NCBI GenBank assembly: GCA_003194525.1
Contig: NBIV01000147.1
Span: 146,144-210,143, forward strand
DNA from: Gracilariopsis chorda
Lineage: Eukaryota > Rhodophyta > Florideophyceae > Gracilariales > Gracilariaceae
Length of the DNA: 64,000 nucleotides
Reading direction: 5' to 3'
Below the pieces are notes generated by a model. It did no database searches. It was not told where the DNA came from and saw nothing but the letters and a program-made list of their open reading frames with translations. This document shows, piece after piece, positions 5,812 to 11,904 of this stretch. The position numbers and the translations under genes were made by a program. Within the stretch, counting starts at the first letter, position 1, and each line of letters opens with the position of its first letter.

Positions 5812-5906
5812 GGTGTGGGGGCATACCACTAGGACCAGCCCCAACCTATGTCACGTAGCCAAGTGCACCTGAAGTTAAGCCTCGCTCACCCATAAGGTCG
5901 GTGCAG
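5812..5906 (+). other. Possible 5S rRNA-derived fragment
   Basis: CATACCAC at 5822 and GAAGTTAAGC at 5871 match two strongly conserved blocks of eukaryotic 5S rRNA in the right order. The spacing is about 11 bases too long and the 3' half is not recognisable. It could be a degenerate pseudogene or the head of a 5S-derived SINE. The TIR element begins directly after it. Confidence 0.25.
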
Positions 5907-5917
5907 CACTCCCTTAC

Positions 5918-6131
5918 CCCCATGACACTTGGGTGACGAATTTTCGTCACCGTATTTTTTGGGTGAACTGGGTGATTCGGTCCCACTGCACCCTGCGTCG
6001 GTGACGGTGCGTGATGCTTGGGTGAACATCACCGACCGTCGGTGAATTCACCCAGCATGTCACCCTGGAATGAGCTTGACTAGACGGGCTTTTCGGCTCT
6101 TCTACGAAACTTTGGCCAGTTCCGTGCCCTT
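5918..6131 (+). repeat. Left terminal inverted repeat
   Basis: 214 bases pairing with 10293-10506 with about six mismatches. It contains a palindrome (GGTGACGAA/TTCGTCACC) 15 bases from the end. The hexamer GGGTGA or its complement TCACCC recurs about six times, which suggests binding sites for the element's own transposase. Confidence 0.93.
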
Positions 6132-6345
6132 TACGATCGCTCAATACAACGAATCTAATCAACGTCAAGAGCTTTGCGGTGTAACAACGTGAATTGTCGA
6201 CAACGCGACCTGGTTTATTGCCCACAACTCTATAATTGCGCACAATACATCATCTCTTTTACATGATGAATACCCTCGCAGAAGAGGCCTTATAATGTAC
6301 TTTTTTTCAGCTTTTCGAGTTCATGTCTTGGAATTGTTGCTCTGA

Positions 6346-9300
6346 CTAACACGCGATCACTGTGCCATGAATTCCAACATGCAGAACATATTGCCTGCCT
6401 ACATGTGCGGCACCATTGTGTTTGCCTTGAACCTCCCTTTTTCTATATTGCTTCCCATTCTTACGAATTGTGTGACTGTACGAACACAAGCAACAGTATG
6501 AAGGTTTTGATTTGACCTTTTCATGTGGTAGTGAGCGCGACAAACGTCGTTGTGTTTCATCAATCCTGTTGTACTTCTCGACCACATTCCGTTTGAACAG
6601 TGGAGCAATATTGCTCTCACGCGATTGCTCTTGTACACTTTGAACTATGTTTTGACTTCGACATGTCTGCTTTGAACACTCCTTTTGCCATAAAACTTTG
6701 AATTCTTTTGCAAGTTGACGAGCATAATCTGCGAATGATGATGATCTCGAAACATTATGACGAAGCTCCCGATACCCGTACGTGTTCGCAACTTTACAAA
6801 CGTCGTCAGGGAGCGCACCGCTATTTTTCGCTCGCGATAATCTATGCACCACTGCTGCATTGTTCACCTGGGCACACAAAAGTCTTCCGATGATGCTCAC
6901 GATTGGGTTTTCAGAAGCATTTGTTAAACAAAGCGAGGTTAGTGCGCGACTGAACTCGTCAACGCCACGTTTCAGGTGATTCCAATAGACTAGAACGGTC
7001 GGTCTAATCATACGAGCGGGTGGAAGTGTACCTTGCTGCCTGACCAGAGCTCGGTACGCCTGGCTGAGGCTGTAGTAAGTTGCGTAAGAATGAAGATCTG
7101 TCGCATGCGACGATCTTAACATAGAATCGTATTCTTCAGGAATATGTCGGGCTTCTTTCCCAATCCAATTAAAGGCAGTTGCACGTATTGCTGCTAATAT
7201 ATAGCTATAACTTGAAAGTATCGACGGAACAAACTCAATAAGAGCGACATAAATTATCTCTCCCATTCCACAGTTACTTCCTTTGGCTACAACAAAGCAC
7301 ACCGTTTTCGTTTGAAGGCACATGGCATGGTGCAAGCATTGTAGTCGGTATTCTGTTGATGGAACCAGGTCATGAAATACCTTTGCAGCATCTGCACTGC
7401 GCCCAACCTCAAGAATAAAATTTGCAGCACCGTATCTACGTCGGACATTTCTTGCAGATTCGATAGTACGCAAAGCGCTCATGGTCTTGACCTCCAAAGC
7501 ACATACTGTGCGACATTGTTCATCATCAATGTAAACCATTAAACCGTCTGGACTGTCGAAAACCATTGCATCAAATCGCGACGCGACCAGCCCTACCGTC
7601 CTAATGTAGTCCACGACAAGTTTGCGTTCTCCTTGATTCACCGTTTTTGAACTCCATACTTTGACATGAGAGCAATCAAAAAACTGCGGTAATGCCTTAA
7701 GGACCTGTGCCTCATTGAATGTACCTTCCTTCATTCCAGCCGTGCTGACAAGCGGTTTCATCACCCAGGACTCCAACGACCTGCTGTACAAGTCTTCCCG
7801 TAGCTTCTTCATTTCGGCCTGCGTTTGCTGCTCCTCCGAAAGGGGCTCCGAGATAGTTTCATGTAGCGCAACAGCTCCGCTTTGAACATCAGCTTGCAGC
7901 TTGATGATCTTGTCAATGACTTCCCCTTTTCTTAGTGCGCCAGAAAGGGAACAACCAATACGGTTCATGGCTGACAAAAGGTCTGCTTTTGTCTTCCTGT
8001 TTAGTTCTGCAACGGTAGAGGACAAGAGAAAAGCCTTAGTTTCCTGAAATGGACTTTCTGCAGTAGCAGACGCAGTATTCATATTAAGAACTTCACATAG
8101 ACTTTGGAAGCGCAATCGTAAAACGCTCTTAGCCTCTTCGGAACTTTCCGGGAAACATGACATACCGTATCCTGTTAGCTTACCCCACACATGCTCCGCT
8201 AACGCCCGGATATTGATCTCATAGTTGTTTGCAAGAACGCGAAGAAAATTGCTCGTTGTTCGCGAAGTATACTGAAAGGCCCTTGCCAAAAACCATCCAG
8301 GATCTTCGGATTGCAGCACGGTGATTTCAGTCACCCCAGCGAGTACTTGTGCCACTTTTGATCGGGATTGATAGGGTAGAAGGACGCCGTTTTGGTATGG
8401 GGCGACATTGTGCTCTGCAACTCTCTCATACACACGATGAAATTCTTCAAGATGTTCCCGGCACTTGAATAATCTGAATCCGGTCTTCGGTATTGGCGTG
8501 AACTTTGATGCTTTAAACATTTCATCGTTGTTGTGGTAAACAGCAGCAACACGCCCACTATAACTCTCCCGGTAGACAATAGCCTCCACTGGGCGGCCAG
8601 AGACAGTATGAGGCTTACGTCGGGCTGAGTAAACTGCACGACAGCCCTTTTCACTCACTTCAACACCCTTATGCCGTTTCCGTAATGGTCCGTCGCCGAA
8701 AATGAATGGATAGTCCAAAGAGCGTTTGTGTGTGCCAAGCACAGTAGCACCCAGTCTGTCATTCAGAAAGTCAATTGCGCATTGATGACTATAACCACGA
8801 TCAGCGGCAAAGGTATGGTCAGTCATCGGTCGAATAGGCCCCGTGGTTGGTACCCCTTGAAGCAATCGTATGAGTCTCTCCCATATATCGATTGACTTTT
8901 CACCTGTTCGTGAATAGTGACTGGCAAGAAAGACAGGGTTCAGAGCAGAACAAATTGCATTGTTGACTGGACCTAATGCCTTTTTCGGATTGTTCACGTG
9001 ACTCATTGCCGTCAATTGGGCTACAGCTCTAGATCGTAATCTCTGATGATCGTCGTCGAGACTGAGAATTGTCTGTTGCGAGATTAACAAGAAAAGCCTA
9101 TTGATTGCAGCAAACTCGTCTTCCAACTCCGTCGCCAAAGAGTTCGCTCGAAGGGGTATATTTGACCAACCACTACCACACTGTTCTACTCGCTGTCTTC
9201 TGCCAACAGTACAGCAGAGCGCAGACCACACTTGGTTGTATCGTTCTCCATTTATGCCAATCTGAAAGAAGAACTCTTTGTTTTCCCGGGAGGTCATGGT

Positions 9301-9750
9301 AGAAACACATGAAGAATAAGAAGCTGCCAGAATATGCAGAATTATGATTCCTTTCAGCTCAACTGAGGAGGTGCTCTCTTGCCTCCTTGCTTTCAAAACT
9401 CTGTTCACATTCGTGGCTATCTTTGCCAATATGTATTCTGGTAGAAAAACGTCAAATATAGCTAGGCGGGAAAGATCACATTCACTAACGCCTCTCTTGT
9501 CTTCTGATACCTCCCTTATTTCTTTCGTTACGCTTCGAAGAATTGCGTTCGCTTCATAAACAAATTGGCGACCAAGTTGGACATTGATTCCGTCAACATC
9601 TATCTCGATCGAATCAAAAGGAGAGGAATATGTCCAGTCTTTCAACCCTTGTCCGAGATTGCCTCTGTTGCTACCATCAGTACTGTTTGAATTATTCTCC
9701 GGCTCTAAGACATCATTGGAATCCAAGCTGAAATCCATGGTGCAGTCCAT
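6346..9750 (-). CDS. Large DDE/E transposase with SAP-like and YqaJ-like nuclease domains
   Basis: 1134 codons from the ATG at 9750. Residues about 225-410 resemble an IS4/piggyBac-type catalytic core: LSLDDDH (D232-D234), then ADRGY (D317) followed by LGTHKR, then VYRE (E395). Residues 577-620 look like a SAP DNA-binding motif (ADLLSAMNRIGCSLSG). Residues about 670-840 match the YqaJ/PD-(D/E)XK nuclease pattern: E680 in GTFNEAQVL, D727 in SRFDAMVF, E753 and K755 in ALEVK, and Q804 in the helix after it. The function inferred is cutting and joining of the element's ends, with a second nuclease of unknown role. The frame continues upstream past one TGA into the 9814-10278 ORF, so this ATG may not be the true start. 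The domain calls come from motif reading, not a profile search. Confidence 0.8.
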   Translation of the reverse strand: MDCTMDFSLDSNDVLEPENNSNSTDGSNRGNLGQGLKDWTYSSPFDSIEIDVDGINVQLGRQFVYEANAILRSVTKEIREVSEDKRGVSECDLSRLAIFDVFLPEYILAKIATNVNRVLKARRQESTSSVELKGIIILHILAASYSSCVSTMTSRENKEFFFQIGINGERYNQVWSALCCTVGRRQRVEQCGSGWSNIPLRANSLATELEDEFAAINRLFLLISQQTILSLDDDHQRLRSRAVAQLTAMSHVNNPKKALGPVNNAICSALNPVFLASHYSRTGEKSIDIWERLIRLLQGVPTTGPIRPMTDHTFAADRGYSHQCAIDFLNDRLGATVLGTHKRSLDYPFIFGDGPLRKRHKGVEVSEKGCRAVYSARRKPHTVSGRPVEAIVYRESYSGRVAAVYHNNDEMFKASKFTPIPKTGFRLFKCREHLEEFHRVYERVAEHNVAPYQNGVLLPYQSRSKVAQVLAGVTEITVLQSEDPGWFLARAFQYTSRTTSNFLRVLANNYEINIRALAEHVWGKLTGYGMSCFPESSEEAKSVLRLRFQSLCEVLNMNTASATAESPFQETKAFLLSSTVAELNRKTKADLLSAMNRIGCSLSGALRKGEVIDKIIKLQADVQSGAVALHETISEPLSEEQQTQAEMKKLREDLYSRSLESWVMKPLVSTAGMKEGTFNEAQVLKALPQFFDCSHVKVWSSKTVNQGERKLVVDYIRTVGLVASRFDAMVFDSPDGLMVYIDDEQCRTVCALEVKTMSALRTIESARNVRRRYGAANFILEVGRSADAAKVFHDLVPSTEYRLQCLHHAMCLQTKTVCFVVAKGSNCGMGEIIYVALIEFVPSILSSYSYILAAIRATAFNWIGKEARHIPEEYDSMLRSSHATDLHSYATYYSLSQAYRALVRQQGTLPPARMIRPTVLVYWNHLKRGVDEFSRALTSLCLTNASENPIVSIIGRLLCAQVNNAAVVHRLSRAKNSGALPDDVCKVANTYGYRELRHNVSRSSSFADYARQLAKEFKVLWQKECSKQTCRSQNIVQSVQEQSRESNIAPLFKRNVVEKYNRIDETQRRLSRSLPHEKVKSKPSYCCLCSYSHTIRKNGKQYRKREVQGKHNGAAHVGRQYVLHVGIHGTVIAC

Positions 9751-9813
9751 CTCGTTGCTGAATAGCGATGACCAGACGTCTTCTACGGCAACAGTACGTG
9801 CTTCAACAGCATT

Positions 9814-10278
9814 TCATGTTTTGTACTGAGTATTGTCATTTGTTCTGTTGTCAAACTCCGCTTTAAGGAGGCGGATTTCTTCTTCAGGTATAACATGATT
9901 GTGATTACGTTGCTCGGTTTGTGACAGACTTGAAGAACTTTCTGACTGGTTAATGTCGAGATTGTTGTACTCAAATGAAGGGTCATCATCGCTATTGAAA
10001 GAATCATTTGCAGTAGATTCAATACTGTTGATGAATTGCTGAAGATTTTGTTCTGAAACGTTTGAAGGCAGTACTGCAAGACCATTTTCTGGAGCGCTTT
10101 TGTCAGAAATATTAAAGGAAATTGGAGACAAGCTGTTCTGGATGGGTGAGGATAGTGACTGCTGATCATGTGCTTCAGATGTACTGTTTCGCGAGATGGT
10201 TAAGTGATCTTGTGAAGCAGAACAACTGGATTTCTTGAGAGGGCTTGGCACAAATGTGTCAACTTTACGTCGACTCAT
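9814..10278 (-). CDS. N-terminal part of the transposase, Ser/Asn-rich acidic
   Basis: 154 codons from ATG 10278 in exactly the same frame as the 1134-codon ORF, separated from it by one TGA (9814-9816) and 20 sense codons. It begins MSRRKVDTF, is rich in Ser, Asn and Asp, and shows no catalytic motif. It starts 15 bases inside the right TIR. Most likely it is the first part of the same protein. Either the TGA lies in a 69-base in-frame intron (9758-9826, GTACAA...TTCAG) or it is a nonsense mutation in a dead copy. A separate small protein is possible but less economical. Confidence 0.6.
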   Translation of the reverse strand: MSRRKVDTFVPSPLKKSSCSASQDHLTISRNSTSEAHDQQSLSSPIQNSLSPISFNISDKSAPENGLAVLPSNVSEQNLQQFINSIESTANDSFNSDDDPSFEYNNLDINQSESSSSLSQTEQRNHNHVIPEEEIRLLKAEFDNRTNDNTQYKT

Positions 10279-10292
10279 TTTGAACGATGATG

Positions 10293-10506
10293 AAGGGCAC
10301 GAAACTGGCCAAAGTTTCGTAGAAGAGCCAAAAAGCCCGTCTAGTCAAGCTCATTCCAGGGTGACATGCTGGGTGAATTCACCGACGATCGGTGATGATC
10401 ACCCAAGCATCGCGCACCGTCACCGACGCAGGGTGCAGTGGGACCGAATCACCCAGTGCACCCAAAAAATACGGTGACGAAAATTCGTCACCCAAGTGTC
10501 ATGGGG
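10293..10506 (-). repeat. Right terminal inverted repeat
   Basis: Inverted partner of 5918-6131. It carries the putative promoter side of the transposase gene, because the ATG at 10278 lies just inside it. Confidence 0.93.
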
Positions 10507-10510
10507 TTAC

Positions 10511-11904
10511 TAAACATGGTAAAGGTAAGCAGCTCTTGGCTAAGTGTGATATCAACTGGTTCCTACAGTCACCCTCATGGTTTAGCTAAAAACATTCAGG
10601 GTTTACTAACCCGTGCGCGCCGTACTACCAACACTATCAATCGGTTACGGTAAGCCTGCCTAGTTATCTTGCGCCCCTAGTGTTTTCCTGCTGCCACACC
10701 GATTCGGTTACCCAAATTCCACCCTTGAGGTCAAGCGCTCGTCACGATCCCGCCAAAAGTTTTGCAAACGAATTACCGTGCTGGGAATTGACACCCAATA
10801 GCCGATACCACACTAAAATGAGTTTTTGATCATTCACCAGCTCTCAATGCTGTTTAGAAGTGCAGAAACGCTAAGCAGTATACTTATGGAAGCCATACCT
10901 TTACTCAAGACAGAACGAGAGTTGATTGGATTAGGTTTATCTCTTTCGAAGCTGTTATCACTCGATGTTCGTGCTCCAGCTAAAGATAAAACTTTTGCGC
11001 AAATATTGGAAAACTGCCTATGTAAGATGCCAAAAAGCAAGTAACAGAATGTCATGGAGCGTAACAACCAAGTTCAGGAGCAAAACGCAAATTAAAAAAG
11101 CTACAGAGACAGAGCCGTCGATCAGGGAAGAAAAAACAGCAGCTTCCTAGCGCTGGAAGAAGATTGCAAAAGCAGGCTACTCAGTTTGGTTAGTGCATTC
11201 GTACGTCCAAAGTAAGGGCTGCGAAGCATCAAAGGCATCGTATTGTAGCTCTAATTTGTAATAAACAGAAAAAGGAAGCGTTCGTGGCCTCAAATATCAC
11301 CATAGACGTTTTTCAGGCGTTGTATGTGGCGCTCTTGGCATAGAACACTTTCCTAAATCGAGCTTAGGTCTATGCTTTGGAGAGGCGCTGGATGAAGGGT
11401 ATGCTTGAAATCTGGCTGGAGTTAGGATTGGTTTGGAAGCTTAGAAGCTGAGTTCCTAATGGAACAGAGGACGGCAAAGCCATTACGCATAGTTTTGAAT
11501 TGCAAAACAAAACGGCTTTTGGGATACAGTAAAACCTTTGGAAATGTCTCCTAAATGAGCCTTTTGTGAATGGTACCGTTCATAAGAAGCTTGAACTGTA
11601 CACTTTTTCAAATTTTCTCAAGATATCTCAGAAACTACTTTATTTTGGTGTTTGAAATGTTGTGCAATCGCTCTGGCGTACAGTGCGCACAGCTTCTTAA
11701 AGCACACGCATCCACATCCAACTGGCAACGAAAGTGTTTTTTGTATGCAAGCATGACACAAATGATGCTTGCACGCACAAAACCGGGTTGTCAAAAATGA
11801 CCTATAAAACCGTTTGCACTAGTTCCATATCATTTGGATCACAGGTGCAAATCATGCCGCGAAACATATTCATCCACGCCAAACAGTATATGACACACAT
11901 ACTA
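10511..11904. other. No gene recognised
   Basis: AT-rich sequence with short frames only. A frame at 10826-11044 (72 codons) has no motif I recognise. A short palindromic block around GGTACC at 11558-11585 shares 18 of 19 bases, inverted, with 3915-3933, which may mark ends of decayed transposons. Confidence 0.4.

What the first reader, a model, noticed from the sequence alone, without database searches (positions are those of the whole stretch)
5918..10506. TIR transposon whose single protein seems to fuse a DDE/E transposase, a SAP-like motif and a YqaJ-like nuclease
Seen: 214-bp TIRs, TTAC target duplication, and one frame of about 1310 codons. Motifs are D232-234, D317 and E395 (IS4/piggyBac-like order), a SAP-like segment at 577-620, and E680-D727-E753xK755 of PD-(D/E)XK type. 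Known: ISL2EU elements carry YqaJ nucleases as a separate protein with a 2-bp duplication, and piggyBac and Kolobok use TTAA. The combination of fusion, TTAC site and CCCC ends fits none of these.
Basis: partly seen in the sequence, partly recalled or inferred. Interest (0 to 1): 0.75.

Follow-up and report, generated by a model that had tools for sequence, protein, structure and literature searches.

The report
piggyBac-like transposon with nested nuclease
This is a jumping-gene family whose cut-and-paste enzyme resembles piggyBac but carries a second, phage-exonuclease-like DNA-cutting domain in the middle of its catalytic domain; what that second domain does is an open and testable question.

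Summary
The element is real: TIRs identical at 208 of 214 bases, TTAC duplication, and six of six checked empty sites with one 4-bp site. It belongs to a family (A) of about 37 places in this genome. The window copy is broken; relatives with open frames exist.

I place it at D931, behind the nuclease: a distant second family (B) aligns there to piggyBac D447. The N-terminal half of A aligns with canonical piggyBacs of the same genome, score 44.0 against at most 28.5 in 200 shuffles.

So a YqaJ/lambda-exonuclease-type domain (E680, D735, E753, K755) sits inside a piggyBac-like RNase H domain, where piggyBac has its insertion domain. YqaJ passes Pfam's cut-off in B; in A it rests on homology to B, and a direct comparison with phage exonucleases was not significant. 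Targets are relaxed (NTAN in A, ATAT in B), so it is not filed as a strict TTAA piggyBac. New variant of a known kind. The nuclease's role, probably processing of DNA ends, is inferred, not shown.

The parts
5918..10506 (-). whole element, family A copy, coding strand minus
   Evidence: TIRs, duplication and empty sites
5914..5917 (.). left target site duplication TTAC
10507..10510 (.). right target site duplication TTAC
5918..6131 (+). left TIR, 214 bp, begins CCCC
   Evidence: 208 of 214 identical to the right TIR
10293..10506 (-). right TIR
5932..5951 (.). palindrome GGTGACGAATTTTCGTCACC at TIR bp 15-34
10473..10492 (.). same palindrome in the right TIR
6346..10278 (-). coding frame of the transposase, broken by one in-frame stop
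9814..9816 (-). in-frame TGA
6346..9750 (-). ORF of 1134 aa used for numbering
9214..9462 (-). residues 97-179, weak match to the N-terminal part of DDE_Tnp_1_7 (helical end-binding region in piggyBac)
   Evidence: E 0.012 here; 22.9 bits, cut-off 22.4, in the C36 copy
9052..9057 (-). first catalytic Asp, D232 or D233 (SLDDDH)
8800..8802 (-). second catalytic Asp, D317 (ADRGY)
8242..8304 (-). nuclease motif 1, W..R....T (residues 483-503)
   Evidence: the equivalent stretch of family B aligns with lambda exonuclease
7897..8019 (-). SAP-like stretch, residues 578-618, between nuclease motifs
   Evidence: by eye only; no Pfam support
7486..7713 (-). nuclease core: E680 (7711-7713), D735 (7546-7548), E753 and K755 (7486-7494)
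7279..7353 (-). nuclease Q motif, Q804
6946..6990 (-). VYWNHLKRGVDEFSR with third catalytic Asp, D931
   Evidence: family B counterpart aligns with piggyBac 438-503 including D447; D in 22 of 22 readable copies
6302..6501 (-). C-terminal Cys-rich region, interrupted by a frame change near 6436-6442

Best explanation
A cut-and-paste DNA transposon of a piggyBac-related lineage. Its single protein is a DDD transposase (helical end-binding region, RNase H domain, C-terminal Cys-rich region) with a YqaJ/lambda-exonuclease-type nuclease nested between the second and third catalytic Asp, where piggyBac has its insertion domain. Supported by sequence: the order of the domains, the 4-bp duplication, the end structure and the conservation of both sets of catalytic residues. 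Inferred: the DDD site nicks, makes and opens the hairpin and joins the ends to a 4-bp NTAN target, as in piggyBac. Inferred with less certainty: the nuclease, held beside flanking or target DNA, resects the 5' ends of the donor break after excision, which would push repair towards copying from the sister chromatid and so regenerate the donor copy.
For: Transposase: N-terminal half of A against canonical piggyBacs 44.0, reversed 16.9, best of 200 shuffles 28.5; A against B 42.6, best of 200 shuffles 24.6. PF13843 matched by 8 of 26 members at E up to 10, one over its cut-off. B tail against piggyBac 438-503 with D447, E 0.025. Nuclease: B over the YqaJ cut-off, B against lambda exonuclease plus ten phage proteins 46.0, best of 100 shuffles 29.9; A against B 64.3. 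Both catalytic sets kept in 26 of the 37 places read: D 21/23, 22/25, 22/22; nuclease E 23/25, D 21/22, E 18/22, K 20/22. Duplications exact at 4 bp in 7 of 9 A copies with both ends and ATAT in B. Insertion domain position and D268/D346/D447 from passages of PMC7351741.
Against: A_nuc against the phage exonucleases directly is not significant: 19.4, shuffles up to 23.5. The best YqaJ match in A, C36, is below the cut-off (17.1 against 22). In the PDB search with whole B, piggyBac came eleventh with E 0.31, behind matches to an RG-rich stretch; the E 0.025 is for a 156-aa piece chosen after that. Whole-protein hhalign of A or B against canonical piggyBac gave nothing convincing, nor did B's N-terminal half. 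No usable structure model. Nothing here shows what the nuclease does; resection is an analogy with lambda exonuclease.
Confidence: 0.75

Rival explanations
1. Same architecture, but the nuclease takes part in the cutting itself: it cleaves the non-transferred strand or opens the hairpin, as TnsA works beside TnsB in Tn7 (recalled).
For: It lies where piggyBac's insertion domain lines the channel for hairpin and target DNA (passages), and its catalytic residues are kept.
Against: The DDD set is kept as well, and in piggyBac that site alone makes and opens the hairpin. The nearest nuclease relatives are exonucleases.
Confidence: 0.25
2. The nuclease domain no longer cuts and serves as a DNA-binding insertion domain that shapes target choice.
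For: The ExK Glu is lost in 4 of 22 readable copies; target choice is relaxed compared with TTAA.
Against: Losses of the same order occur in the DDD set of these decaying copies (D1 2 of 23, D2 3 of 25), and both families keep E, D, ExK and Q.
Confidence: 0.15
3. A transposase unrelated to piggyBac (IS4-like or a new superfamily) with D, D, E395, and the nuclease simply following it.
For: E395 is conserved in 23 of 26 copies; direct sequence matches to piggyBac are weak one by one.
Against: The colinear alignment with canonical piggyBacs beats 200 of 200 shuffles, the GGVD motif behind the nuclease aligns with D447, and ends and stagger agree.
Confidence: 0.12
4. Chance nesting or an assembly join of two unrelated genes.
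For: Nested insertions occur: the two ends of the C37 copy are about 20 kb apart.
Against: The same order recurs in relatives at about 46% identity and in family B, in open frames of 1349 and 1094 aa.
Confidence: 0.01

Closest known systems
piggyBac superfamily (T. ni piggyBac, piggyBat; Pfam DDE_Tnp_1_7)
   Same: Order of the three Asp with GGVD, helical region before it, C-terminal Cys pattern, CCC ends, 4-bp stagger, palindrome near bp 24 in the clearer ends
   Different: Nuclease of several hundred residues between the second and third Asp (614 residues apart here, 101 in piggyBac), target NTAN or ATAT instead of strict TTAA, divergence below most Pfam cut-offs
ISL2EU (PHIS superfamily)
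   Same: A DDE transposon with a YqaJ nuclease (PMC4482050, passages)
   Different: There the nuclease is a second ORF, the duplication is AT and ends usually begin GG
YqaJ / lambda exonuclease family of phages
   Same: Motifs W..R..T.S, GxxxE, SPDG, ExK and Q, in family B at 46.0 against shuffles up to 29.9
   Different: In phages it stands alone beside annealing proteins; in family A a SAP-like stretch of unknown meaning separates motif 1 from the core
Tn7-type TnsA with TnsB (recalled)
   Same: A PD-(D/E)XK nuclease working with a DDE transposase
   Different: There it is a separate or end-to-end fused subunit of another nuclease family, not nested in the RNase H domain; not tested here

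Membership tests
piggyBac superfamily | DDD triad with the third Asp in a GGVD motif | tested here: met
   alignment to D447 for family B, A aligned to B, first two Asp by hhalign; from sequence only
piggyBac superfamily | match to DDE_Tnp_1_7 over the curated cut-off | tested here: inconclusive
   8 of 26 members match at E up to 10; of the individual scores seen only C36 is over the cut-off, 22.9 against 22.4, on 98 of 349 positions
piggyBac superfamily | 4-bp target duplication | tested here: met
   exact in 7 of 9 A copies with both ends, one base different in 2; empty sites
piggyBac superfamily | target strictly TTAA | tested here: not met
   TTAC, CTAG, TTAG, TTAT as well as TTAA in A; ATAT in B, 9 of 9 left and 7 of 7 right flanks
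piggyBac superfamily | C-terminal cross-brace Cys-rich domain | tested here: inconclusive
   pattern YCxxC..CxxC..C in A and B by eye; no significant profile match; zinc binding not testable
piggyBac superfamily | palindromic binding site near TIR bp 17-33 | tested here: inconclusive
   11 of 23 ends score 7 or 8 of 8 paired bases, 10 of these centred at 22.5-28.5; the other 12 are no better than shuffles
ISL2EU | transposase and YqaJ in two ORFs | tested here: not met
   one frame in the open relatives; definition
ISL2EU | AT duplication and GG ends | tested here: not met
   4 bp, CCCC or CCCTAG ends
YqaJ / lambda exonuclease family | YqaJ profile match over the cut-off | tested here: inconclusive
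   met in family B (eight places over the cut-off; 31.4 bits); not met in A, best 17.1 against 22
YqaJ / lambda exonuclease family | catalytic E, D, ExK and Q | tested here: met
   E680, D735, E753, K755, Q804, kept in most copies, aligned through B
SAP domain | match to a SAP profile | tested here: not met
   no SAP family listed at E up to 10 for 26 members

The most novel reading that the evidence does not exclude
A DDD transposase with a working exonuclease nested in its RNase H domain couples excision to processing of the donor break, so that a jump tends to be repaired by copying and the element multiplies: a built-in link between cut-and-paste transposition and homologous repair, reached separately by piggyBac-like elements and by ISL2EU.
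Probability: 0.3. Interest if true: 0.85.

Novelty: new variant of a known kind. Interest (0 to 1): 0.62.

Why it matters
PMC4482050 says that the function of the additional proteins of these transposons, the YqaJ protein of ISL2EU among them, is unknown (passage). Here the same kind of nuclease lies inside the transposase of another lineage, at the place that in piggyBac lines the hairpin and target channel. Point mutants of one protein could separate the two activities and show what the nuclease does. It would also show that the insertion site of the RNase H domain can take up a whole second enzyme, and that piggyBac-like targeting can relax from TTAA to NTAN or switch to ATAT.

Tried and rejected
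E395 as third acid: not supported. SAP domain: no profile support. ISL2EU: rejected on ORFs, duplication and ends. Structure prediction from the window protein alone, whole and nuclease segment: mean pLDDT 35 and 38, so no fold search was made. PDB sequence searches with the open A relative, the A2 profile and a C36 piece gave nothing useful. Whole-protein hhalign against four canonical piggyBacs found nothing convincing for A or B; with seven more varied ones, the N-terminal half of A aligned, while the A DDE segment alone, the A C-terminal half and B's N-terminal half did not. Only the pairs A_N/piggyBac and A_N/B_N were then given the shuffle control. Relatives in viral contigs: none in three scans; none in one scan of bacterial and archaeal genomes. 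Other eukaryotic genomes could not be searched. dN/dS between near-identical copies is 0.55 to 1.25 over whole frames, as expected for decaying copies, and is no evidence of selection. In one search the left end of family B was cut one base short, so its centre is one higher than printed. The list of 4-bp flanks was made with a pattern that demands NTAN, so it is biased; the seven left flanks were not so chosen and are 7 of 7 NTAN.

Full report
What is there. The window element spans 5918-10506. Its TIRs are identical at 208 of 214 bases and it is flanked by TTAC. The flanks belong to a repeat found elsewhere in the genome: a search with the joined flanks lists 40 matches, one of them the occupied site's own left flank. 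I read the junction in the six that were cut out: 6 of 6 have one copy of the 4-bp site (TCAC in five, TCGC in one) and no gap there. A second case: the C1 copy and the C177 relative lie in the same TTAA of one repeat, and an empty copy of that repeat lies beside C177. So the 4-bp duplication is shown.

The family. A protein search of the whole genome gave 55 matches, which I group by hand into 37 places. Six copies carry the window's TIR at both ends, 12 matches at 96-100% identity; a thirteenth match, at C305, is partial at 78%. C177 has an open frame of 1349 aa; C181 and C307 are 96-98% identical to it over their longest pieces. The window copy is broken: an in-frame TGA at 9814-9816 and a frame change in the Cys-rich region. 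I call all this family A. A second family, B, came to light because its YqaJ domain passes Pfam's cut-off, in eight places. Nine places carry its left end, seven of them among those eight. It has an open frame of 1094 aa and ends in CCCTAG.

Targets. Family A copies with both ends readable: TTAC (window), CTAG (C5), TTAG (C91), TTAA (C37), TTAA (C177), TTAG (C86) and TTAT (C43) exact, 7 of 9; C1 (TTAA/CTAA) and C255 (ATAA/AGAA) differ at one base. Family B: ATAT in 9 of 9 left flanks and 7 of 7 right flanks. The stagger is that of piggyBac; the sequence is relaxed or changed.

The transposase. Pfam's DDE_Tnp_1_7 matches the window protein weakly (E 0.012) and the same region of the C36 copy just over its cut-off. 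The N-terminal half of family A, aligned with seven canonical piggyBacs of the same genome, scores 44.0; reversed 16.9; 200 block shuffles at most 28.5. The alignment runs from the helical region over the first Asp (LDDD against VDEG) to the second (ADRGY against ADSFF) and the strand behind it (GTHK against GVVK). Segments given alone (the A DDE part, the A C-terminal half, B's N-terminal half) did not align significantly. The genome holds 119 canonical matches, and one of them matches piggyBat at E 1.4e-12, so the yardstick is sound. For the third Asp: in a PDB search with whole B, piggyBac came eleventh at E 0.31, behind matches to an RG-rich stretch. With a 156-aa piece of B's tail it is the best match, E 0.025: LYSRTKGGVD against YYNQTKGGVD ending at residue 447. 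A and B align over this stretch. In A the motif is YWNHLKGGVD (C177) or YWNHLKRGVD (window), and the Asp is present in 22 of 22 readable copies of the 26 examined. That D268, D346 and D447 are the catalytic residues, and that the insertion domain is 372-433 after the fifth strand, I take from passages of PMC7351741.

The nuclease. It lies between the second and third Asp, 614 residues apart in the window protein against 101 in piggyBac. In B it matches YqaJ at 31.4 bits, cut-off 22, and aligns with lambda exonuclease and ten phage proteins at 46.0, best of 100 shuffles 29.9. A against the phage set directly is not significant (19.4, shuffles up to 23.5); A against B gives 64.3, without a shuffle control of its own for this segment. 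In A the residues are E680, D735, E753, K755 and Q804 in window numbering. Kept, of readable copies among 26 of the 37 places: E 23/25, D 21/22, E 18/22, K 20/22; DDD 21/23, 22/25, 22/22. Six near-identical copies weigh heavily in these counts. In four of four comparisons with copies at about 60% identity the nuclease has dN 0.39-0.42 and the N-terminal DDE part 0.17-0.28, with synonymous sites saturated: both are constrained, the nuclease less.

Ends. Family A ends in CCCC, B in CCCTAG. A palindrome lies at bp 15-34 of the window TIR. Of 23 ends examined, 11 reach 7 or 8 of 8 paired bases, 10 of these with centre 22.5 to 28.5 and one at 14; the other 12 are no better than shuffles. In piggyBac a dimer of the Cys-rich domain binds a palindrome at bp 17-33. 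A keeps the Asn that in piggyBac (N440) contacts a hairpin base; B has Ser there. I note this without resting on it.

How it works. Likely as piggyBac: nick, hairpin, opening and joining by the DDD site, with the Cys-rich region on the palindrome. The nuclease is an addition to a machine that needs none. Since its nearest relatives digest from an end (recalled for lambda exonuclease), I think resection of the donor break most likely (about 0.4 given the architecture), a direct part in cutting next (0.25), a non-catalytic role after that (0.15). None of this is tested here.

Known or not. Searches of the paper library for YqaJ with piggyBac, with transposase and oomycete, DNA transposon and superfamily, ISL2EU, transposase and fused and Phytophthora, for piggyBac with oomycete, and for a transposase with nuclease and insertion domains, listed no paper whose title or shown abstract describes this. 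I saw listings only, apart from passages of PMC4482050 and PMC7351741. Repbase itself, where such elements may already be filed, could not be searched.

Noticed in passing
G000 C21:327735-327954 and C202:14171-14390: Two places carry the left end of family B but are not among the eight YqaJ matches; they may be shortened copies.
   Followed up: no
L060 994-1011, 1047-1064, 4588-4605, 4792-4809: Family B ends hold several copies of a GGTTCCATATATGGAACC-type palindrome, at both ends of the element.
   Followed up: partly
L052 2015-2134 and 6579-6972; L025 586-688: The C177 and C1 elements sit in the same TTAA of one repeat, and further copies of this repeat, in inverted order, lie beside C177; the repeat was not identified.
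   Followed up: partly
L053 7793-8872: An open frame that looks like a Harbinger-type transposase (by eye, recalled motifs) lies next to the C86 element.
   Followed up: no
L032 and L033 (C306, C283): These two copies share the flank TAGGTAGG-TTAG and the same altered nuclease residues, which suggests a duplicated segment rather than two insertions.
   Followed up: no
window 5818-5917 and 10511-10610: The window element lies in a repeat with at least 39 other listed places at 81-88% identity; the repeat was not identified.
   Followed up: partly
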